Under the pieces are notes generated by a model, which saw only the letters and a list, made by a program, of their open reading frames with translations, searched no databases and was not told where the DNA came from. A DNA stretch of 64,000 nucleotides, taken from positions 1 through 64,000 of IMG/VR virus record IMGVR_UViG_3300020392_000009. The stretch is one strand, 5' to 3'. The stretch comes from a virus. Made by a program: the position numbers and the translations under genes. Shown here one piece after another: positions 7 through 60,859 of this stretch. Numbering within the stretch: position 1 is the stretch's first letter; every line of letters begins with the position of its first letter.

Positions 7-330
7 ATGACTAATAAAACTATGAATGCTATAGGAACTATAGAAACTTTAGATAAGAAGGTTGCAGAACTTTCAACATCAATTGATGTATTACATAGCA
101 CGATTGCAGTTGAAGTCCAACACCAAATAACTAAAGGACTTGAGCCAATTATAGAGAAACTGATAGAGGAAAAGAATAAAGAATTAAAAGACATTATTAT
201 TTCTTCTATGACTAAAGCACAGAAAGCCCAAGAAGAAGTTAAAGAATTAACTAAACTAATGAAAGGTTATAAAAGTTCTAACACAAGAATGAAAAACAAA
301 ATAAAAGAATTTGAGGAGAAATTAAAATGA
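7..330 (+). CDS. Small coiled-coil protein
   Basis: This 107-residue protein is strongly charged and helical. After a short N-terminal part (MTNKTMNAIGTIETLDKKV) it runs as heptad-like segments with leucine and isoleucine spacing, ending in a lysine- and glutamate-rich tail, so a coiled coil or oligomerisation role is likely. No catalytic motif is visible. It is the first complete gene of the + strand replication operon and overlaps the next start by four bases (ATGA). I do not recognise a family. Its position suggests an early accessory protein, but that is only inferred from context. Confidence 0.7.
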   Translation: MTNKTMNAIGTIETLDKKVAELSTSIDVLHSTIAVEVQHQITKGLEPIIEKLIEEKNKELKDIIISSMTKAQKAQEEVKELTKLMKGYKSSNTRMKNKIKEFEEKLK

Positions 331-491
331 AATATACAAAATATGTAACAGCCAAAATAGAATATGATAATGATGAAACTTGGGAGGAAACTGAAAAAGA
401 CATCAATGATATAATAGAAATGCTAACTAACTTAAAGCGTAGAGCAACTATTATTGAAATAAAACAAGGAGCGAATAATTATGGTGAATGA
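327..491 (+). CDS. Small acidic hypothetical protein (54 aa)
   Basis: The reading frame opens at an ATG that overlaps the preceding stop as ATGA, and closes inside the start of the following gene, the tight coupling seen throughout this operon. It translates to 54 residues starting MKYTKYVTAKIEYDNDET, with an acidic middle and a mixed helix end (TNLKRRATIIEIKQG). The beta-then-helix look suggests a small folded domain. No motif is recognised. It is judged real mainly because it exactly fills the space between two genes. Confidence 0.6.
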   Translation: MKYTKYVTAKIEYDNDETWEETEKDINDIIEMLTNLKRRATIIEIKQGANNYGE

Positions 492-855
492 CGATATTTT
501 CAAATGTGATTCTCACACTACTAAGGGAGAGCCTTGTAGGAGTTTAACTCATATAATGATACCAAGCAAAAACGGAGAGCCACCTAGTAAAATTAGATGT
601 AATTTTTGCCATATGCATTGTCCCCACCATCAGCAATTCCAAGAAATGAAAGAAACTCTAATTTCATTAGTTTCTATTCTTTTTGGAATCAAGGGTAGTA
701 GAAGTGTATTCAATAGCATTTGGATGCTTTCTCCTGCCACAGAATACTCTCATGTAGACTACAGTAGTTTTATGGAATCATGTGATGATTTAATAGAACA
801 CTTAAAGGAAATAAAAGAAGAGGTAGATAGTCATGTCAATGATGGACAAAACTAA
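481..855 (+). CDS. Putative zinc-binding protein
   Basis: The 124-residue product has a cysteine/histidine-rich N-terminal half: FKCDSH, EPCRSL, then CNFCHMHCPHH, giving C9, C20, C41, C44 and C48 with several histidines. This looks like one or two structural zinc sites. The second half is helical and acidic (DDLIEHLKEIKEEVDS). The gene overlaps its neighbours on both sides within the replication operon, so a nucleic-acid or replication-accessory role is plausible. I cannot name a family. The start may be the ATG used here or the adjacent GTG. Confidence 0.7.
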   Translation: MVNDDIFKCDSHTTKGEPCRSLTHIMIPSKNGEPPSKIRCNFCHMHCPHHQQFQEMKETLISLVSILFGIKGSRSVFNSIWMLSPATEYSHVDYSSFMESCDDLIEHLKEIKEEVDSHVNDGQN

Positions 856-967
856 CGAACTCCTTGAAGAATTACTCGCTATGATTGCTAAGAGCAATAA
901 AATATTAATGATGGTAAATATTGTAAACATAGCGACCATCATAACGATAATAACGGTGATAATATGA
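833..967 (+). CDS. Small single-pass membrane protein (44 aa)
   Basis: A 44-residue frame begins MSMMDKTNELLEELLAMIAK and ends with a hydrophobic stretch (NIVNIATIITIITVII) that would make one transmembrane helix at the extreme C-terminus, a tail-anchored layout. It overlaps the end of the upstream gene and its stop overlaps the next ATG, which supports it as a real coupled gene. The function is unknown. Confidence 0.5.
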   Translation: MSMMDKTNELLEELLAMIAKSNKILMMVNIVNIATIITIITVII

Positions 968-1185
968 ATAATGAAGATAAGAAAGAAAAAGAAATAAAGC
1001 AATTGAAGTATAAAATAGAAGTATTAGAGGAAAGAATTGAAGGCTTAGAAAAAGACTTGGATTCTATCGTAGAGAACAGCCCCGACTTTGGAATGATAAA
1101 ATATTGCATTGAAGAATTACAAGAAGTAGTTGCCAATATACACAACCAACCCGTCGGAATCTTATTTACCCGCTTAAAGAAGTGA
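964..1185 (+). CDS. Small coiled-coil protein (73 aa)
   Basis: The product starts MNNEDKKEKEIKQLKYKIEVL and continues as a clear leucine/isoleucine heptad coiled coil over about residues 8-38. A short second helical part (IKYCIEELQEVVANIH) and a tail ending FTRLKK follow. GGTGA lies just upstream of the ATG. It sits immediately before the polymerase fragment, so it might bridge or accompany the polymerase halves, but nothing in the sequence proves this. Confidence 0.65.
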   Translation: MNNEDKKEKEIKQLKYKIEVLEERIEGLEKDLDSIVENSPDFGMIKYCIEELQEVVANIHNQPVGILFTRLKK

Positions 1186-1189
1186 TAGT

Positions 1190-2074
1190 ATGAAAGTAGT
1201 TTATGGCCATACAGATTCTATTTATGTTCAAGTAGATTCGGTAGCGAAAGCACAGATGATTTGTGTAGATATTCAGGACAGTGTAAGAAAGCATTTTCCT
1301 AATGTTATGGGATTAGAGCAACACCCAGTTGTATTAGAGTTTGAAAAATACTATTCGGCACTAGGTGTTGGCACAACTAAAAATAGAAACGCAGGAATGA
1401 TTACTTGGAAAGATGGTGAATGGTTAGATGAAGCCGAATTTGTTATGACCGGATTTACTGCTAAAAGAGTTAGTGAAACAAAGTTAGCCAAAGAGGTTCA
1501 AACAGAGGTTTTGAAGTGGTGGGTGTCTCAAGAAACATTAGAGCAGATTAATTCTAAACTAAGTAGCACTTTTAATGATGTTCTTAGTGGTAATTATCCA
1601 CTGGAGAATGTAATTAAAAGAAGTAGACTGAGAGAAGATAGGTTTACAGTGAGATGTCCTCAATGTAAAACTAAGTATGATTTAAGAGAAATGGAAGAAC
1701 TGAAATACTGTAAAAAATGTAGTGTTAGTCCTTCTAAGTTTAGAACATTAGAAGATAGAAATCCTAGTATTGGTTCAGGAATAGCGGGTGTAATTTATGC
1801 TTGCCAAAGCAATTCCAACACCTTTGATGACTCTTATCTTTATCTAAAGGTAATAAGTAAAGAAACATTTACTCATCCTCTGACTAAAGAGAACAAACAA
1901 GTTCAGTATTTAGCAGGTTCTAATTACAAAGACTTTGAGGGTTCTTTACCGGACTGGAAGCACTATGCGGAGCAAGTCGTTAAAAAAGCAGAACCTATTT
2001 ATCGAGCGATGGATTGGGATATATCTAACATAAGAACAGGAACAATACAGAAAACATTAGGAGACTGGTTTTAA
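1190..2074 (+). CDS. polB: DNA polymerase B, C-terminal fragment (split gene)
   Basis: This 294-residue protein begins almost at motif C of family B polymerases (VYGHTDSIYV, residues 4-13). The conserved palm-thumb segment follows (TGFTAKRVSETK, about 88-98), then a four-cysteine zinc ribbon (C156, C159, C174, C177). It ends in QKTLGDWF (287-294), an excellent match to the PCNA-interacting motif QxxLxxWF. The exonuclease domain and motifs A and B are absent, and nothing upstream in the window supplies them, so the rest must be encoded elsewhere. In motif C the first aspartate of the usual YxDTDS is histidine while the second is kept. Family B polymerases copy DNA from a primer. This part supplies a catalytic aspartate, the thumb and the clamp-binding tail. 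Split PolB genes are known in some methanogens. Confidence 0.88.
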   Translation: MKVVYGHTDSIYVQVDSVAKAQMICVDIQDSVRKHFPNVMGLEQHPVVLEFEKYYSALGVGTTKNRNAGMITWKDGEWLDEAEFVMTGFTAKRVSETKLAKEVQTEVLKWWVSQETLEQINSKLSSTFNDVLSGNYPLENVIKRSRLREDRFTVRCPQCKTKYDLREMEELKYCKKCSVSPSKFRTLEDRNPSIGSGIAGVIYACQSNSNTFDDSYLYLKVISKETFTHPLTKENKQVQYLAGSNYKDFEGSLPDWKHYAEQVVKKAEPIYRAMDWDISNIRTGTIQKTLGDWF

Positions 2075-2967
2075 TGAATTATGAAAACGAAATTAAGAAT
2101 ATGAAACAATATACCTATAAATGGAATCCCGAAAATTATGATAAACCAAATGAGCCAATATTGAAGGTTAGTAAATCTTCATTGGGTTCTTTTGATTGGT
2201 GTCCTAAAAAATATGAATTCAATTACATACAAAGATTACCTCAAGATACCACAGAAGCCATGCTAAAAGGAACTGTATTACATAATCATAGAGAAGATTT
2301 CTTCAATGTTTTTGATATCAAGAAAGCCAACACCATGAGCGAACATGAAATACTAGAGTATTGCACTAGTCTTATGCCAATAGATGACTACTACGACATA
2401 TCATTAACCGTAGCCGCATTTGAAGCGCAGAGATTTATTGATGCTAGAAAAGAGAACAAAGTTCATGAGTATTTACCTGCTGTAAATGAAGGGATGTTTG
2501 ATGCTGAAATAACAGTCGAAGCAAACTGGAATGAAAAGTTTCCTCTAAGTAGAGATTATATTATACATATTCAAGGCATTATTGATAGAATATTTGTAGA
2601 AGATAATAAGATTATACTCTTTGAATATAAGACAGGTGGATGGAAAGACTACAAAGCAACTAGCATGCGTAAAGAAATGGCCTTCTATCAATTACTATTA
2701 GAAAGTGCTAGTGATGTTGTATTAGAGAAATATGGATTAAGTAGAGATATGGAGGTTACTCATTGGGGCTGGTATTATCCGGTATCTAATCATGTTCAAG
2801 TTGAACCAATTAAAAAAAGAAGTATGACATCGGTAAAAAACAACCTTGCTAGGCTGATTCATGCCTATGAACAAGACCATTTTTCTACAAAGTATTTTTA
2901 CAAGACTTGCGCTCATTGCAGTTACTTTGGTATTTGTGATGGTAATATGGAGAGTTGGATAGCATGA
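2074..2967 (+). CDS. Cas4/RecB-like iron-sulphur PD-(D/E)XK nuclease
   Basis: The 297-residue protein has the Cas4/AddB-type layout. An N-terminal cysteine lies in SFDWCPKKYEF (C43), followed by GTVLHNHRE (H70) and the nuclease core with D171 (GIIDRIF) and E184-x-K186 (FEYKTGG). A C-terminal cysteine cluster, C279, C282 and C288 (CAHCSYFGIC), together with C43 would bind a 4Fe-4S cluster. Such enzymes are single-strand exonucleases. Here it sits between polymerase and primase genes, so replication or recombination is more likely than CRISPR adaptation; no cas genes or arrays are present. The start overlaps the polymerase stop (TAATG). Confidence 0.88.
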   Translation: MNYENEIKNMKQYTYKWNPENYDKPNEPILKVSKSSLGSFDWCPKKYEFNYIQRLPQDTTEAMLKGTVLHNHREDFFNVFDIKKANTMSEHEILEYCTSLMPIDDYYDISLTVAAFEAQRFIDARKENKVHEYLPAVNEGMFDAEITVEANWNEKFPLSRDYIIHIQGIIDRIFVEDNKIILFEYKTGGWKDYKATSMRKEMAFYQLLLESASDVVLEKYGLSRDMEVTHWGWYYPVSNHVQVEPIKKRSMTSVKNNLARLIHAYEQDHFSTKYFYKTCAHCSYFGICDGNMESWIA

Positions 2968-6769: not shown

Positions 6770-6993
6770 TGTGGGAAAATACATTTTTAGTGTTTGAAGT
6801 TAGTAAAGGGCCGAAAGTTATAATTGAATCTCTGGATAATTATGGTAAAGAGGGTTGGGAATTGTGTTCAATGCTTCTTGTTGCAGGTAATCAGATAGTC
6901 GCTTTTCTAAAAAGAAAAGTCGGAGATGAAGAACCTAAAGAAAATAAGGAAGAACAAAAGATTGCTAAACTTTGGTCTGCTGATGGTAAGTGA
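6766..6993 (+). CDS. DUF4177-like small protein
   Basis: The 75-residue product begins MMWENTFLVFEV and contains LDNYGKEGWELCSMLLVAG followed by FLKRK. This GKEGWEL...F.KR pattern is typical of the small DUF4177-like family, whose function is unknown. The C-terminal part is charged (EEPKENKEEQKIAKL). The start codon overlaps the ATPase stop. The family call rests on the short GWEL signature only. Confidence 0.65.
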   Translation: MMWENTFLVFEVSKGPKVIIESLDNYGKEGWELCSMLLVAGNQIVAFLKRKVGDEEPKENKEEQKIAKLWSADGK

Positions 6994-6997
6994 TAGG

Positions 6998-7591
6998 ATG
7001 TCAGTCTTAGCACTTGACATAGAAACAAAAAATATGTCTTATGAAATAGGGGGATTCTCAAACACCCATATGTTTCAAGTATCTACTGTTGCCACTTGGG
7101 ATGGAAATACTGGAACTGTTTATGTTGATGAAAAAGTTGATTCTTTCGCTAAGTCAGGCCACATTATTAAATCTCTTAGAGAGTTAAAATATGATTTAGA
7201 TGACAGTTTTGAAAAGGGAGTCAAATTACTAGGACATAATATTGCGGCCTTTGATTTACCCATTCTTAGAGATTCTATGGATATTTACTGTATTAATAAA
7301 TTTATTAAGAATAATCAATACATAGATACTTCTAAGATTTTATTAAAGCAACATAAAGAAAGATTCCAACTAAAGAATTTAGTTAAATGCACAATGAACG
7401 ATTTTAAATTGATGGATAGTGCAGATGCGCCTAAGTTATGGAAAATGGGTCAATACGATGAAGTAGTAGAGTATTGTATGAAGGATACTCAATTAGTTTA
7501 CGACCTATGGCAGATAGGTAAGAGTCAAGGAAAAGTAAAAGCATTCTCAATAGATAAAGGAGAACACAAAGAACTGGAGGTGAATTGGTAA
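6998..7591 (+). CDS. DEDD-family 3'-5' exonuclease (DnaQ/PolB-exo fold)
   Basis: The ATG at 6998 is preferred over an upstream TTG because it places ALDIET right at the N-terminus. The motifs are Exo I D7-x-E9, Exo II HNIAAFD (N81, D86) and Exo III VEYCMKD (Y159, D163). The 197 residues make a single RNase H-like exonuclease domain. Because the polymerase fragment upstream lacks an exonuclease domain, this could act as a free-standing proofreading or repair subunit, though the missing polymerase half may carry its own. It ends exactly where the next gene starts. Confidence 0.85.
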   Translation: MSVLALDIETKNMSYEIGGFSNTHMFQVSTVATWDGNTGTVYVDEKVDSFAKSGHIIKSLRELKYDLDDSFEKGVKLLGHNIAAFDLPILRDSMDIYCINKFIKNNQYIDTSKILLKQHKERFQLKNLVKCTMNDFKLMDSADAPKLWKMGQYDEVVEYCMKDTQLVYDLWQIGKSQGKVKAFSIDKGEHKELEVNW

Positions 7592-45917: not shown

Positions 45918-46060
45918 TTCTTCATCCCCTTTGGCTTATCTGCCTGTTCCCAACATCTTCTACAAAAACCAAATGGGTGAACATCTCTTGTCATATAACA
46001 TCTACCGCAGTATTTGAAATTAAGTTTCTGCTTCTTAATTACCCACTCTTTAGTATTCAA
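45914..46060 (-). CDS. Zinc-finger micro-protein (48 aa)
   Basis: A TTG start overlaps the preceding stop (TTGA), and its own stop overlaps the next ATG (ATGA). The product, starting MNTKEWVIKKQKLNFKYCGR, has CGRC and FCRRC (two CxxC pairs) and a Lys-rich end. It is a probable zinc-ribbon adaptor. It joins the LAGLIDADG-type gene to the run of tagged basic proteins. Confidence 0.6.
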   Translation of the reverse strand: MNTKEWVIKKQKLNFKYCGRCYMTRDVHPFGFCRRCWEQADKPKGMKK

Positions 46061-47415
46061 GCCAGTATTCCTCCTACATTTTCTAGTTCATCCATCACTG
46101 ACATTTTACAATTGTCTTTGTATTTCTGTATATCATCCAAGTATATTCCTTCTTTTAGCCAATCAAAACCAACATGGTCTTTATGATTCTCCCACTTCAT
46201 TAATTTAAAGATTTCATCACAACGGCTCTTATACCAATCAGCCTTCTTGTAAGATTTCTTCATTCTAATTAATTCTAACAAAAGTTCTGCATTACCCTTC
46301 TTTAATCTAAAGTGAGGCAGACATTTTGTTAGAAGTTCACTAACATCTGCTTGAGAATAAAAGTTTAAGCGATTAATTAATCTAGTGTCTTGAGGAGATT
46401 TTTGGTCTAGGTGCATACGACCAAATCCTATTGACTTGTGCATTTCTTTCATGAATACCTTTCCTCTTTCTCCAGTAGCAACTAGCCCAACTCTAGGATT
46501 CATATTTCTATCTAAAGTAATATAGCCATCCGAATCAATAAATGCGGCAGTATAAGCCCAAATATTCTTTTTGATAAGAGATGGAACTTTGTAGTAAGAA
46601 CCATTATGTGAAGCAACCTCTAACTTTCTTATTGTCTTAGAAATCATATTTGGGTTTGTTATGTTAAACATATCAACAGGCATCTTTTCATGTATGCCTT
46701 TAGCGGTAATGCCTTGATGTTTTGTTATAGTATTTTCAATAAACTCTAGTTGTCTTTCTTTTTTGCTTTTGTTTAGGGTCTGAGTCTTGACTGCTTTAAG
46801 ACACTCCCTAAATTCTTTTTTTGCTTGCGACATTTCCTTAGATAATTTACTATATTCTTTTGAATAAGCCATTCCTTCTCTATCTAATTCAGCCTCCCAG
46901 TATTTACAAAGCGAATCTACTATGCCTCTTCTAGACTTAATATCTTTCATTTTATTTAGTCTCGATAAATCTTTTTCAGTGAATCTCATTTTCCTAAAAG
47001 GTTGTTTGTAAGGTGCTAACCAAAAGATACTATCAATTGATTTCTCTAAATGCTCACTATAAGCATCTATTACTACATCAATGGCCTTAGACATATTTTC
47101 TCTAAGACTCCCCTTTAATTCTCTACGATTATTTCTCATTTTTTTAACAAGTTCTGGGACAGTTTGTTCATGAATAATATATTGTTTTGGAAAGACATCT
47201 AGCATCTTTCTTGCTTCACTGGCATTAATAGAATATGTTTTAGAAACCAGTGCCAATTCATCCACTTCTGACATTACATAATCCTTTGATACTAAACTCT
47301 TAATTGTTATACTTTCAGGTAAATTACTTACAATTTTACCCTCTTCTTCATTCAGTTCTTTTAGTCTACCAAACTGTTCTTCGGCTTCTTCTAGTTCTTC
47401 GACTGTTAGATTCAT
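46057..47415 (-). CDS. LAGLIDADG-type protein with winged-helix linker
   Basis: The 452-residue protein has an unfamiliar N-terminal half (1-215), a winged-helix-like part (222-280, with HQGITAKGIHEKMPVDMFNI), and then IWAYTAAFIDSDGYITLDRN (285-304), a clear LAGLIDADG motif. A homing-endonuclease-like domain follows, with GFGRMHLDQ and a Leu/Lys-rich end. One motif copy is visible, so it may dimerise or contain a second degenerate copy. It lies immediately after the large terminase gene. It could be a freestanding homing endonuclease or have been domesticated for genome processing. Confidence 0.72.
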   Translation of the reverse strand: MNLTVEELEEAEEQFGRLKELNEEEGKIVSNLPESITIKSLVSKDYVMSEVDELALVSKTYSINASEARKMLDVFPKQYIIHEQTVPELVKKMRNNRRELKGSLRENMSKAIDVVIDAYSEHLEKSIDSIFWLAPYKQPFRKMRFTEKDLSRLNKMKDIKSRRGIVDSLCKYWEAELDREGMAYSKEYSKLSKEMSQAKKEFRECLKAVKTQTLNKSKKERQLEFIENTITKHQGITAKGIHEKMPVDMFNITNPNMISKTIRKLEVASHNGSYYKVPSLIKKNIWAYTAAFIDSDGYITLDRNMNPRVGLVATGERGKVFMKEMHKSIGFGRMHLDQKSPQDTRLINRLNFYSQADVSELLTKCLPHFRLKKGNAELLLELIRMKKSYKKADWYKSRCDEIFKLMKWENHKDHVGFDWLKEGIYLDDIQKYKDNCKMSVMDELENVGGILA

Positions 47416-56914: not shown

Positions 56915-57574
56915 TCACTTATGCCACCTAAGCGAGAATTCCGTGTCTGCGTTAATTCCCGACTTTTTTGCTATTTCTTTAAAAAGAATATTTTGTTCTC
57001 TAACAAATAGTGCTTCAATAGAATAATAAGAAGGATATTTTAATGCTATTTCTGAAATTGTCTCAAGTATTAAAACAGTTTTTCCATTTTTATAAACTTG
57101 TAGGCCATTTATGCTAAATATTTCGTTGGTGTCCTTTGTCTTATTAAAGGTTCTTTCAATTCTATAATAAGTCCCATTTATCTCAATATTTTCATTGTCA
57201 CTTTTTTCTTCTTTAAGCATTTCTAACGCCTTGCAAGCGACACTTTCCGGAATATTATCGGGTTCGTAAAAATGATATATTAAGAATTCTACTATAGGAA
57301 AACTATAGTCTCTATTATTTCTTATAACAAAACTTTTGCCGTCGCCATCAGCAATAGGCTCAACCTCTATTATCAGTTCACCATATTTACTGTAGTTCTC
57401 ATGCCAACCCTCTTTCCATGTTTTTTCAACAACGGGCTTGTAATTTTTTAATTTGTTCGCTAATCTTTGTAGTTCTCTTTTACAATCATCATCTTCGATA
57501 TCTATATCAATATCTTCTATCTCTTTTACACGGCCTTGCGTGATTACATTTTTAAGAATATCTTTCCATTTCAT
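56915..57574 (-). CDS. Tagged paralogue family member 1
   Basis: Starts MKWKDILKNVITQGRVKEIE, then DIDIDIEDDDCKRE, the family signature. The rest resembles member 6 (60215): ANKLKNY, then VACKALEMLKEE and the end FSLRWHK. 219 residues. The N-terminal 40 residues are almost identical across six adjacent genes, while C-terminal parts diverge. Possible functions include sets of variant virion or anti-host proteins; no family is recognised. Confidence 0.65.
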   Translation of the reverse strand: MKWKDILKNVITQGRVKEIEDIDIDIEDDDCKRELQRLANKLKNYKPVVEKTWKEGWHENYSKYGELIIEVEPIADGDGKSFVIRNNRDYSFPIVEFLIYHFYEPDNIPESVACKALEMLKEEKSDNENIEINGTYYRIERTFNKTKDTNEIFSINGLQVYKNGKTVLILETISEIALKYPSYYSIEALFVREQNILFKEIAKKSGINADTEFSLRWHK

Positions 57575-58170
57575 TAGAAAGCCCCATATCTCTCTAGTGT
57601 GTCAATAGCCCAAGTCTGTTCTAAATGCCGAAGTAACTCTTTAATAGTGTTTTTATTTTCTTTTATTCTCTCATCGGTAAGAACACCCGTCACACTAACT
57701 TTTGAGTCTGGACCGCTACCCCTTCTTTCCCAACTTATGAAAACCTCTAACGCAACATCTCCATATTCAGTATCTCTTTTTTCTCCTAACCTTTCAAATA
57801 AAGTATAAATTTTAACAGCATATATGAATTCTTGAACACCAAAATCGGCAACAATAAAACCATGTTTCCGATAGGTTTCCTTAGCCCTATTTTGCCTGTT
57901 TATGCTTTCAGTGTTTATGGTGTATTGTTCAGTTAAATCTTTTTTAAGAAGGCAAGCGGTTTCTTCATCTAAGTCTGGGACAGGTTCATAAAGCCATCCC
58001 TCGATTAGTAAGTTGGATGCTGGTTTTTTAATAGAAACACTACTAAGAATCTTAATAAGCCTGTCATACCATCTACGACAATCATCTTCATCTATATCAA
58101 TATCTATATCTTCTATCTCTTTCACTCTCCCTTGAGTAATAGCATTTTTTAAGATATCTTTCCAATCCAT
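57574..58170 (-). CDS. Tagged paralogue family member 2
   Basis: Starts MDWKDILKNAITQGRVKEIE, then DIDIDIDEDDCRRW and a divergent body. It contains LLIEGWLYEPVPDLDEETAC, EEAC-type middle and a beta stretch (GSGPDSKVSVTGVLTDERIK), ending IDTLERYGAF. 198 residues. The N-terminus is shared with the five neighbours; the rest is most different from members 3 and 4. The ATG and preceding stop share bases. Confidence 0.65.
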   Translation of the reverse strand: MDWKDILKNAITQGRVKEIEDIDIDIDEDDCRRWYDRLIKILSSVSIKKPASNLLIEGWLYEPVPDLDEETACLLKKDLTEQYTINTESINRQNRAKETYRKHGFIVADFGVQEFIYAVKIYTLFERLGEKRDTEYGDVALEVFISWERRGSGPDSKVSVTGVLTDERIKENKNTIKELLRHLEQTWAIDTLERYGAF

Positions 58171-58838
58171 TAATATCCCCCAAACCGTTTAGATATCACA
58201 TACAAAAAAGAACCCTCTCCATAATTAACATCTGTTCTAGTAGTATGTTCTGAAATTACATTACTTATTGCTCTATCTACATACTTAACATAATCATCAA
58301 AGAATACTCTATTATCACAATGTTTAGAAAATTGTTTTATCATTTTTGCATATGGCTCATAGAAAGAAATTAACTTATTATAAACTTCTTTATCTGTATC
58401 ATTAGGATTAGTAAATTCTTTTATTAAATTATCCGTTGATGCTTCCATACTATCTTCAAAAAGCCCAAAAAATACCGCCCATTCTTGATATTTGGGTAGT
58501 TTTACCGAAATACTAAAAACATAGTCCCTTCCCTTATTGACATAAAAAATAAATATTGGAAAACGACCATCTTCCTTCCTAAGTTTAAAACTAATACCAT
58601 CATAATTTTCTAATTTGTCTTTTAGTTCACAAGCCAGTTCTTCTGAAACTAAATTTATATCTCCGTATGTTGCAAATTTTCTGTGCAATCTGTGTGTAGG
58701 TTTGTATGATTTTATTATTTGGTGTAATCGTATTAGCCACCTTCTGCAATCATCATCTTCTATATCAATATCTATATCCTCAATTTCTTTCACTCTACTT
58801 TGAGTAATAACATTTTTTAAGATATCTTTCCAAACCAT
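58170..58838 (-). CDS. Tagged paralogue family member 3
   Basis: Starts MVWKDILKNVITQSRVKEIE, followed by DIDIDIEDDDCRRWLIRLHQ. With member 4 it shares IIKSYKPTH, a GDI..VSEE.AC.LK.KLEN.D pattern and KMIKQFSKHC, ending RFGGY. This is the most recent-looking duplication in the array. 222 residues. The function is unknown. Confidence 0.65.
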   Translation of the reverse strand: MVWKDILKNVITQSRVKEIEDIDIDIEDDDCRRWLIRLHQIIKSYKPTHRLHRKFATYGDINLVSEELACELKDKLENYDGISFKLRKEDGRFPIFIFYVNKGRDYVFSISVKLPKYQEWAVFFGLFEDSMEASTDNLIKEFTNPNDTDKEVYNKLISFYEPYAKMIKQFSKHCDNRVFFDDYVKYVDRAISNVISEHTTRTDVNYGEGSFLYVISKRFGGY

Positions 58839-59527
58839 TAATATCCCCCGAAACTGCTCTTTATAGCCCTTTCAAAAACATCATCGTCAAGGTTAATATT
58901 ATCGTCAAATCTTCCGCCTAATTGCTCAGAACGCATTAACAGCACTTTTTTCACCCTTCTTGCTACATGACTTATATAATTATCAAAGAATATTCTATTC
59001 TTACAATGTTTAGAAAATTGTTTTATCATTTTTCCATATGGCTTATAGAAAGATACTAAGTCATCAAAAAGTTGTAGAAATGGTTCATCCGGTTTAATAA
59101 ATTCCTCTAGCAATATTCGAGGAAAACTACCACCAGCATGTGTTGTTATCGACCATGCCCTATTTTTAGGCTGTCCTGCCAAAATTATAAGAGTATGGCC
59201 TAAAGTTCTAGGGTTATAAAAAAATCCAGCCCCATCTTCTACCTCATCATCAAGACTGGGAGCAAAGCCGAGATATACCGCAGAACCATCATGGTTTTCT
59301 AATTTGCTTTTTATTAGACAAGCCTGTTCTTCTGTAACTCCAGTTATATCTCCATTTGTTACAACCTTACCATGCATTTTGTGTGTAGGCTTGTATGATT
59401 TTATTATTCGTTCTAATTGTATTAGCCATCTGCTACAATCATCGTCGTCAATATCTATATCAATATCCTCTATCTCTTTTACCCTACTTTGAGTAATAAC
59501 ATTCTTGAGAATATCTATCCAATTCAT
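58838..59527 (-). CDS. Tagged paralogue family member 4
   Basis: From the ATG at 59527 it starts MNWIDILKNVITQSRVKEIE, then DIDIDIDDDDCSRWLIQLER, and is closest to member 3 (KMIKQFSKHC, RIFFDNY, end SFGGY). A GGGGGGGG run lies just upstream of the ATG as an extended ribosome-binding site. 229 residues. An upstream GTG start in the same frame exists, but the tag supports the ATG. Confidence 0.65.
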   Translation of the reverse strand: MNWIDILKNVITQSRVKEIEDIDIDIDDDDCSRWLIQLERIIKSYKPTHKMHGKVVTNGDITGVTEEQACLIKSKLENHDGSAVYLGFAPSLDDEVEDGAGFFYNPRTLGHTLIILAGQPKNRAWSITTHAGGSFPRILLEEFIKPDEPFLQLFDDLVSFYKPYGKMIKQFSKHCKNRIFFDNYISHVARRVKKVLLMRSEQLGGRFDDNINLDDDVFERAIKSSFGGY

Positions 59528-59528
59528 A

Positions 59529-60209
59529 TTACTCCCCCCCCTTATACTTACCATTAAATTTCTTTCTTGCTTCTTTCGATGAATCCGGTATTTTTCTAAC
59601 CCTTTCCATGTAATCCTGCATCAATCTTCTAGTGCCTGTAAAATCCCAAGAACAATGCCTATATAACCTCTCAAGAAATCTAAATAAATTTTTATCGGAA
59701 TCAGCAAAATCGTCAAAATCTACCCTTTCAATATGAATTTCAATAAACGATTCGTCTAATTCTTCAAAAGTATTTCTTGGCCAAGATTCCATAAATCTAA
59801 GACTAAGGCTAAGATAAGGTTTTATAGTCCGTTCATACCTATAAGGGTCGCCTTCTTCTTCAACAACAGATAGTCCCATTCTTACTATACTTTCTCCTCT
59901 TTTATTGCTTCCCTCAATCCTAGTATGAGAATTGAAAGGAATAGGCAAGTCTCCCTTTTTATTTACTACCAAAGTTTTTTCTATCGCTTCTTTAAATTCA
60001 CAGGCTTCTGCTTCTGTTATACCTTTACCAACCTTATTGTCTGTTAAGTTATCCATTCCCGCGTCTTTCTTAGCAAAGCCTACAATAATATCTTGAAGTT
60101 GTTTAAGCCATCTAAGACAATCATCATCTTCTATATCAATGTCTATATCCTCAATTTCTTTTACCCTACTTTGGGTAACAGTTTCCTTTAAGATATCCTG
60201 CCACCTCAT
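59529..60209 (-). CDS. Tagged paralogue family member 5
   Basis: From the ATG at 60209 it starts MRWQDILKETVTQSRVKEIE, then DIDIDIEDDDCLRWLKQLQD. The body (AEACEFKEAIEKTLVVNKKG) retains the AC..K pattern of the family, but the rest is unlike the other members. It ends KKFNGKYKGGE, with an eight-G run next to the stop. 226 residues. The homopolymer could be a slippage-prone site. Confidence 0.65.
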   Translation of the reverse strand: MRWQDILKETVTQSRVKEIEDIDIDIEDDDCLRWLKQLQDIIVGFAKKDAGMDNLTDNKVGKGITEAEACEFKEAIEKTLVVNKKGDLPIPFNSHTRIEGSNKRGESIVRMGLSVVEEEGDPYRYERTIKPYLSLSLRFMESWPRNTFEELDESFIEIHIERVDFDDFADSDKNLFRFLERLYRHCSWDFTGTRRLMQDYMERVRKIPDSSKEARKKFNGKYKGGE

Positions 60210-60214
60210 ATTAA

Positions 60215-60859
60215 TCACTCATGCCAACTAAATCCAAATTCTCTTGCGTCATAATATCCTGAGTATTTATATATTCCCATAGTATCAATTTTATTATCGT
60301 TTTCATCATAAATACCAGTAAAGAACTCACCATTTGACCACGATAAAATTATAGAAAAGGGTTTACCTTTCTCAGCAATAATGAGTTCATTGATATTATA
60401 TTGATAGTCAAAATTAAAACTTCTCATTATTTCCCAATCTACTCCATCGTGTTCAAAATCATATATTTTATATGTATCACCTACAGCCGATTCATTTCTT
60501 TGATGGCTTTTTAAAATTTCCAATGCTTTACAGGCTACGGGTTCGGGAACAGGATTATAGAGGAATTTAGCACTTTCAAAAAACTCTGAAAATTGTTTAT
60601 TTAATTTTTTTTGAGATAATGAAAAATTTTTTTTATTGACCGCAGGATTGTTATCCTCTATTATTTCAAAATATTCTGCATTTCTTGGCCAACCTGCCTT
60701 CCACCGTTCTTCTAAAAGAAGATTGTAATTTTTCAATTTATTTGCCATTTGCTGTAGTTTTCTATTACAGTCATCATCCTCAATATCAATATCTATATCT
60801 TCGATTTCCTTAACCCTATTTTGGGCTATCGTTTCTTTAAGGATATCTTGCCATGACAA
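60215..60859 (-). CDS. Tagged paralogue family member 6
   Basis: A TTG start yields MSWQDILKETIAQNRVKEIE, then DIDIDIEDDDCNRKLQQMAN. The body resembles member 1 (KLKNYNLLLEERWKAGW; VACKALEILKSHQ; end FGFSWHE). 214 residues. As the first gene of the array in the direction of transcription it could be the progenitor copy. The close pairing of members 1 and 6 at both ends of the array suggests duplication followed by internal divergence. Confidence 0.65.
   Translation of the reverse strand: MSWQDILKETIAQNRVKEIEDIDIDIEDDDCNRKLQQMANKLKNYNLLLEERWKAGWPRNAEYFEIIEDNNPAVNKKNFSLSQKKLNKQFSEFFESAKFLYNPVPEPVACKALEILKSHQRNESAVGDTYKIYDFEHDGVDWEIMRSFNFDYQYNINELIIAEKGKPFSIILSWSNGEFFTGIYDENDNKIDTMGIYKYSGYYDAREFGFSWHE

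What the first reader, a model, noticed from the sequence alone, without database searches (positions are those of the whole stretch)
1190..2074. Split DNA polymerase B: C-terminal piece with PIP box and altered motif C
The gene starts at motif C (YGHTDS with histidine for the first aspartate) and ends in QKTLGDWF, a clamp-binding motif. The other part of the polymerase is not in the window. The break lies just before the catalytic motif, close to where PolB inteins often insert, so the split may descend from an intein-bearing or a broken gene. The free DEDD exonuclease at 6998 may belong to the same machine.
Basis: partly seen in the sequence, partly recalled or inferred. Interest (0 to 1): 0.66.

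Follow-up and report, generated by a model that had tools for sequence, protein, structure and literature searches.

The report
Magrovirus DNA polymerase in two genes
The replicative DNA polymerase of a large group of viruses of marine archaea is made as two separate proteins, broken exactly at the catalytic core and carrying two unusual active-site residues; the split itself has already been drawn for one such virus, but its sharpness, breadth and altered active site are notable.

Summary
Window 1190-2074 (+) encodes the last 294 residues of a family B DNA polymerase, from motif C (YGHTDS) to a PCNA-binding-like tail (QKTLGDWF). The window is the first 64 kb of a 91.7-kb virus record with magrovirus-like gene content. 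The other half is in the same virus: the record's last ORF is the polymerase N-terminus, cut off at the record end. In relatives the intact N gene (~550 aa: exonuclease, motifs A and B) lies 180-2392 bp upstream of the C gene. In 116 distinct gene pairs the break falls at the same point, every motif C has His for the first Asp, and motif B has Ala/Ser for Asn in all 112 readable pairs. Fourteen unsplit polymerases keep Asp and Asn. No intein, intron or second polymerase was found. The C gene has its own ribosome-binding site; both halves are under purifying selection. Best explanation: two independently translated chains assemble into one polymerase whose catalytic palm forms only on pairing. 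The intein idea is not supported; a homing-nuclease origin is possible (HNH gene in the gap of two lineages) but unproven. ICTV already labels PolB-NTD/CTD in one Aoguangviridae genome, and active split PolBs are known elsewhere.

The parts
1190..2074 (+). polB-C: C-terminal polymerase chain (second palm part, thumb, PIP-like tail), 294 aa
   Evidence: Foldseek to solved PolBs E 1.7e-5
1202..1219 (+). motif C YGHTDS; His replaces the first catalytic Asp
   Evidence: His in 116/116 distinct relatives; Asp in 14/14 unsplit relatives
1334..1348 (+). LEFEK, invariant palm carboxylates
   Evidence: 114/116 LEFEK, 2/116 IEFEK
1655..1720 (+). C-x2-C ... C-x2-C zinc-ribbon-like insert in the thumb (not in all relatives)
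   Evidence: 73 of 116 relatives have the four-Cys pattern
2048..2071 (+). C-terminal PIP-like peptide QKTLGDWF
   Evidence: pattern in 113/116 relatives
964..1185 (+). gap ORF: 73-aa coiled-coil-like protein, ends 4 nt before polB-C start
833..967 (+). gap ORF: 44-aa predicted membrane peptide, conserved in many relatives
   Evidence: present in 74 of 116 gaps
481..855 (+). gap ORF: 124-aa Cys-rich protein, no family match
327..491 (+). gap ORF: 54-aa protein of the MKYTKYV..DETW family
7..330 (+). gap ORF: C-terminal part of a ~150-aa coiled-coil protein that follows polB-N in relatives
   Evidence: aligns to L007:8998-9335 at 88%
2074..2967 (+). PD-(D/E)XK (Cas4/Exo5-like) nuclease, the next gene also in the relatives read; a neighbour, not part of the polymerase
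   Evidence: PF12705 E 1.9e-16

Best explanation
This virus makes its sole recognisable DNA polymerase as two chains from two genes of one operon. Chain N (~550 aa) carries the N-terminal domain, an intact 3'-5' exonuclease, palm motif A and the fingers with motif B. Chain C (294 aa) carries the motif C hairpin, the rest of the palm, the thumb and a C-terminal clamp-binding-like peptide. Each is translated from its own start, and they then associate non-covalently, so that the palm beta-sheet and the metal site form only in the complex; the C tail docks it on the virus-encoded clamp. Shown: the sequence anatomy, its breadth, independent ribosome-binding sites, selection on both halves and shared history. 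Inferred: physical assembly, activity and clamp binding. The split probably arose once, on the stem of the sampled magroviruses, by an insertion or breakage in an unsplit halovirus-like gene; the gap has since served as a slot for small genes.
For: N gene upstream of C in relatives. 116 distinct pairs, all split at the same point, gap 180-2392 bp. The N end (..REAIRLAAFKAKELEV) and C start (MKVVYGHTDS) join colinearly with unsplit HVTV-1/HF2 without gap or extra residues. SD-like motif before the C start in 94/107 pairs versus 14% at internal in-frame ATGs; C abuts or overlaps an upstream ORF in 115/116. Median dN/dS 0.16 (N) and 0.11 (C); distance correlation 0.84 against at most 0.25 in 1000 permutations. 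AlphaFold models of each half alone are confident except at the palm: N residues 392-415 (just before and into the motif A strand) below 50 pLDDT, C residues 1-20 at 53-65 and 52-71 below 50; both match solved PolBs. One N plus one C per virus record; no PolA, PolD-DP2 or intein match. Precedent: gp43A/43B of Aeromonas phages co-purify and polymerise (PMC2988022).
Against: No biochemistry. Two residues normally important in catalysis are replaced (motif C Asp by His, motif B Asn by Ala/Ser), so activity cannot be assumed. The clamp gene next to polB-N is only weakly recognisable by sequence here (best clamp hit E 0.12). The N gene of this very virus is incomplete in the record. The distance correlation largely reflects shared descent and does not prove contact.
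Confidence: 0.9

Rival explanations
1. The two halves are joined after all, by a split intein, an intron in the gap, or ribosomal bypassing, into one polypeptide.
For: Breaks at motif C are a known intein site (own knowledge), and Nanoarchaeum equitans trans-splices a split PolB (PMC4104785).
Against: No intein residues on either half in any of 116 pairs; no intein model match in nine near-complete records though the control rings; no Rfam match in six loci; the gap is filled with different real ORFs and shrinks to 180 bp; C has its own SD and start.
Confidence: 0.03
2. On origin (compatible with the best explanation): the split was caused by a free-standing homing endonuclease (HNH type) that inserted into an unsplit polB at its most conserved spot; later loss left a gap open to other genes.
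For: In two lineages the gap holds an HNH endonuclease (phrog_1035 endonuclease VII, E 5.2e-11) directly or closely after the N gene; Aeromonas phage 25 has a seg-type endonuclease in its split gene 43, and mobE splits nrdA in Aeh1 (PMC2988022).
Against: HNH in only 2 of 116 distinct gaps, both in shallow lineages, so it may be a later arrival; deepest lineages have none.
Confidence: 0.35
3. The altered motifs mark a polymerase that is inactive or specialised (translesion-type), the bulk of replication being done by the host polymerase.
For: A His in motif C is also conserved in archaeal B2/G2 PolBs, linked to translesion synthesis (PMC7544198).
Against: It is the only replicative polymerase found in the virus beside a near-full replisome; exonuclease intact, unlike B2; strong purifying selection; [quoted passage not shown]
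Confidence: 0.12
4. Decaying duplicate or assembly artefact.
For: The piece looks truncated when read alone.
Against: Recurs in 116 distinct pairs from independent assemblies, including a contig binned in a bacterial MAG; low dN/dS; no complete copy.
Confidence: 0.01

Closest known systems
PolB-NTD/PolB-CTD of Aoguangviridae (Poseidoniales virus YSH_150918; ICTV profile, PMC10768690)
   Same: Same kind of virus by gene content and size (about 92 kb, two opposed gene clusters, GroEL, RFC-S, TFB); the genome map labels two PolB genes.
   Different: The profile's text does not describe the break point, altered motifs B and C, gap genes or how widespread the split is. The genome itself was not available here for comparison.
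gp43A/gp43B of Aeromonas phages 44RR2.8t and 25
   Same: Two-gene PolB of a tailed virus; the halves of phage 25 co-purify and are active (PMC2988022).
   Different: Break lies before motif B (43B contains KILINSLYG and YIDTDS), motif C Asp retained; different lineage.
Split PolB3 of Methanobacteriales (Methanothermobacter; Kelman et al. 1999)
   Same: Archaeal PolB from two genes; both chains needed for activity (own knowledge of the abstract); break near motif C (recollection from subunit sizes, not tested).
   Different: PolB3 family, proposed erratic intein excision (PMC4104785); not compared by sequence here.
Nanoarchaeum equitans split PolB
   Same: PolB in two non-adjacent gene pieces.
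   Different: Pieces carry split-intein parts and are trans-spliced (PMC4104785); none here.
Unsplit PolBs of haloarchaeal tailed viruses (HVTV-1, HF2, VOLN27B)
   Same: Closest named homologues found, about 23-28% identity, colinear across the break.
   Different: One gene, motif C DTDS, motif B with Asn.
Archaeal PolB2/bacterial G2
   Same: Conserved His in motif C and only one motif C Asp (PMC7544198).
   Different: Exo motifs degraded there, intact here; one gene there.

Membership tests
Family B DNA polymerase | DNA_pol_B domain and PolB fold | tested here: met
   N half PF00136 39-193 E 2.1e-19; C half 222-366 E 5.9e-9; folds match solved PolBs
Family B DNA polymerase | fully canonical motif C (DTD) and motif B (KxxxNSxYG); common but not strictly required, since recognised groups (B2, primer-independent PolB) lack the first Asp (PMC7544198) | tested here: not met
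   HTD in 116/116; Ala/Ser for Asn in 112/112 readable; motif A, second Asp, LEFEK and exo residues kept
Family B DNA polymerase | 3'-5' exonuclease residues (DxE, D, D) | tested here: met
   D120, E122, D207, D328 invariant
Split-intein PolB (N. equitans type) | intein halves at the junction | tested here: not met
gp43A/43B type split | break between motif A and motif B | tested here: not met
   break here lies between motif B and motif C
Methanobacteriales split PolB3 | PolB3 descent and same break point | not testable with these tools
Homing-endonuclease-split gene | endonuclease gene within the interrupted gene | tested here: inconclusive
   HNH in 2 of 116 gaps, none in the window
Magrovirales / Aoguangviridae | 90-100 kb, own replisome, PolB in two parts, GroEL, TFB, RFC-S, two opposed gene clusters | tested here: met
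   gene content by reading and family matches; placement within a family or genus not tested
PIP-box protein | Q-x-x-h-x-x-aromatic-aromatic at a free end | tested here: met
   113/116; binding to the clamp not tested

The most novel reading that the evidence does not exclude
A replicative polymerase whose catalytic centre is assembled in trans from two chains, with a re-engineered active site (His for the first motif C Asp, Ala/Ser for the dNTP-phosphate-contacting motif B Asn) that evolved together with the break, so that metal or nucleotide binding and chain assembly are coupled, and the gap between the halves is kept as an expandable gene slot co-expressed with the polymerase.
Probability: 0.25. 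Interest if true: 0.72.

Novelty: new variant of a known kind. Interest (0 to 1): 0.48.

Why it matters
Magroviruses occur ubiquitously in the surface ocean (PMC10160649). A polymerase fixed in two pieces at its most conserved hairpin, and lacking a residue usually counted in the catalytic aspartate triad, is a natural experiment on what family B catalysis really needs. It gives a ready-made two-part polymerase for reconstitution, and a further case (beside PolB2 and primer-independent PolB) for the dispensability of the first motif C Asp, here in what looks like the sole replicase of a virus. It also warns annotators: tools that look for one PolB gene or for DTDS may call these genes fragments.

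Tried and rejected
Intein or intron in the gap: rejected. Second complete PolB: none. Unsplit or DTDS magrovirus: sought with six scans of viral contigs from several starting points; none among the loci kept, but each scan keeps only the best 80 of up to 549 matches. An apparent 986-aa open frame spanning N and C in four records proved to be a same-frame span with a stop and gap between. Exonuclease domain family PF03104 does not ring in the own record because only about 156 residues of the N chain are there. Clamp identity by sequence was only suggestive. Kelman 1999, Philosof 2017, Zhou 2023 and Prabhu 2025 are not held; ON649702 is not in the collections.

Full report
What is there. ORF 1190-2074 (+) encodes 294 residues that begin MKVVYGHTDS and end QKTLGDWF. 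Pfam DNA_pol_B matches residues 1-145 at model positions 222-366 (E 5.9e-9). The frame upstream is closed by a stop a few codons before the ATG. The window is the first 64 kb of a 91,671-b virus record.

Where the other half is. The record's last ORF, beyond the window (L003:14152-14670, running off base 91671), is the N-terminus of a PolB, ending just past the exo I motif WYWDMEW. In relative L007 (contig of 92.8 kb) the same gene is intact: 553 aa ending ..SAREAIRLAAFKAKELEV-stop, followed by about 1.1 kb of small ORFs, then polB-C and the PD-(D/E)XK nuclease. The record's two ends fall inside the N gene and just after it, about 1.3 kb apart in L007 coordinates; this fits a circularly permuted or circular genome, as ICTV reports for the type virus (PMC10768690).

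How general it is. Scans of viral contigs gave 116 distinct N/C pairs. All are split. The gap runs from 180 to 2392 bp (median 840). The N chain ends at the same helix and the C chain starts at the same strand; aligned to the unsplit polymerases of HVTV-1 and HF2, the junction is colinear with no residues lost or added. Motif C is YGHTDS (111) or YAHTDS (5); motif B is KRL[MS][AS]SFYG in all 112 pairs where it was recognised; in 14 unsplit relatives both motifs are canonical. On a tree of concatenated halves the split/His sequences form one side of a fully supported branch against 13 unsplit ones (long branches and a quick search, so deep placement is unsure). One or two events cannot be separated, because no intermediate was found. 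The fetched loci are a sample: each scan keeps 80 of up to 549 matches, so unsplit magroviruses are not excluded.

Why it is not decay. Median dN/dS is 0.16 for N and 0.11 for C; pairwise distances of the halves correlate at 0.84 (1000 permutations reach at most 0.25). Each of 20 virus records holds one N and one C piece and no complete copy; in a 21st, G017, the tool reports one merged match, which one search shows to be the same two genes. Neither PolA nor the PolD large subunit was found in nine near-complete records.

Why it is not spliced. Neither half carries intein residues. The intein splicing model matches nothing in nine records although it rings in control genomes. Rfam finds nothing in six loci. 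The gap holds different ORFs in different lineages (zinc ribbons, a winged-helix-like protein, coiled coils, a membrane peptide by reading). A Shine-Dalgarno-like motif (GTGAT, GGAG and the like) precedes the C start in 94 of 107 pairs, against 14% of internal in-frame ATGs, and C abuts or overlaps the ORF before it in 115 of 116. So the C chain is a gene in its own right.

Mechanism. In PolBs, motif A (N chain) and motif C (C chain) together form the three-stranded palm sheet that holds the two metals (PMC3564110). Predicted alone, the N chain is confident (mean pLDDT 84) except around its motif A strand, and the C chain is confident in the thumb (above 90) but poor in the palm strands. This is what one expects if the palm is completed only on pairing, though AlphaFold confidence is indirect evidence. 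Both models match solved PolBs. The second motif C Asp (the metal ligand D623 of RB69) is invariant; the first (D621, a member of the aspartate triad; PMC3792054) is His, and the Asn that contacts the dNTP phosphates (N564 of RB69; PMC3564110) is Ala or Ser. [quoted passage not shown] I therefore expect an active enzyme with altered metal or nucleotide handling; this is inference.

Origin. Two lineages have an HNH endonuclease (phrog_1035, E 5.2e-11) in the gap. Phage precedents show homing endonucleases splitting genes whose products still assemble, and an endonuclease sitting in a split PolB gene (PMC2988022). But HNH is in 2 of 116 gaps, so cause and later arrival cannot be told apart.

What is known. 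The ICTV profile of Aoguangviridae labels PolB-NTD/CTD in its genome map, so the split in this virus group is known to specialists; no text that I could read describes the break, the altered motifs, the gap genes or the breadth, and several key papers were not held. Split PolBs are known in Methanobacteriales, N. equitans and Aeromonas phages. The 44RR break lies before motif B, so the two viral cases are different breaks. I rate it a new variant of a known kind.

Noticed in passing
window 30333-63399, - strand, 22 ORFs: At least 22 minus-strand proteins of the structural region begin with a shared W-x-[DEN]-[IV]-[LI]-K tag (MSWKDILK and variants); 22 of 23 occurrences in ORFs of 60 aa or more are near the N-terminus. 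It looks like a common targeting or virion-packaging signal.
   Followed up: partly
window 56915-60859, - strand: Six tandem paralogues with the N-terminal stretch Q.RVKEIEDIDIDI.DDDC, no Pfam match for the one tested.
   Followed up: partly
window 46057-47415, - strand: 452-aa protein next to the terminase large subunit with a C-terminal part that reads like a LAGLIDADG homing endonuclease (AAFIDSDGYITL); Pfam gave no match.
   Followed up: partly
window 6926-7591, + strand: Free DEDD exonuclease (phrog_403, E 3.8e-8), also present in L353:13021-13614 in the same order; its role beside a polymerase with its own exonuclease motifs is unclear.
   Followed up: partly
L003:8177-9019 (record ~85176-86018): P-loop protein near the clamp loader whose C-terminus QKTLGDYL is nearly the same PIP-like peptide as the polymerase tail.
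   Followed up: no
L123/L205, contig IMGVR_UViG_3300021958_000021 (184.7 kb): A contig about twice genome length holding two different magrovirus polymerase loci (62% and 49% C-chain identity to the window); probably two viruses joined in assembly.
   Followed up: no
L290, NZMJ01000151.1: A 24-kb magrovirus contig sits in a GTDB MAG labelled Maricaulis (a bacterium); probable binning contamination.
   Followed up: partly
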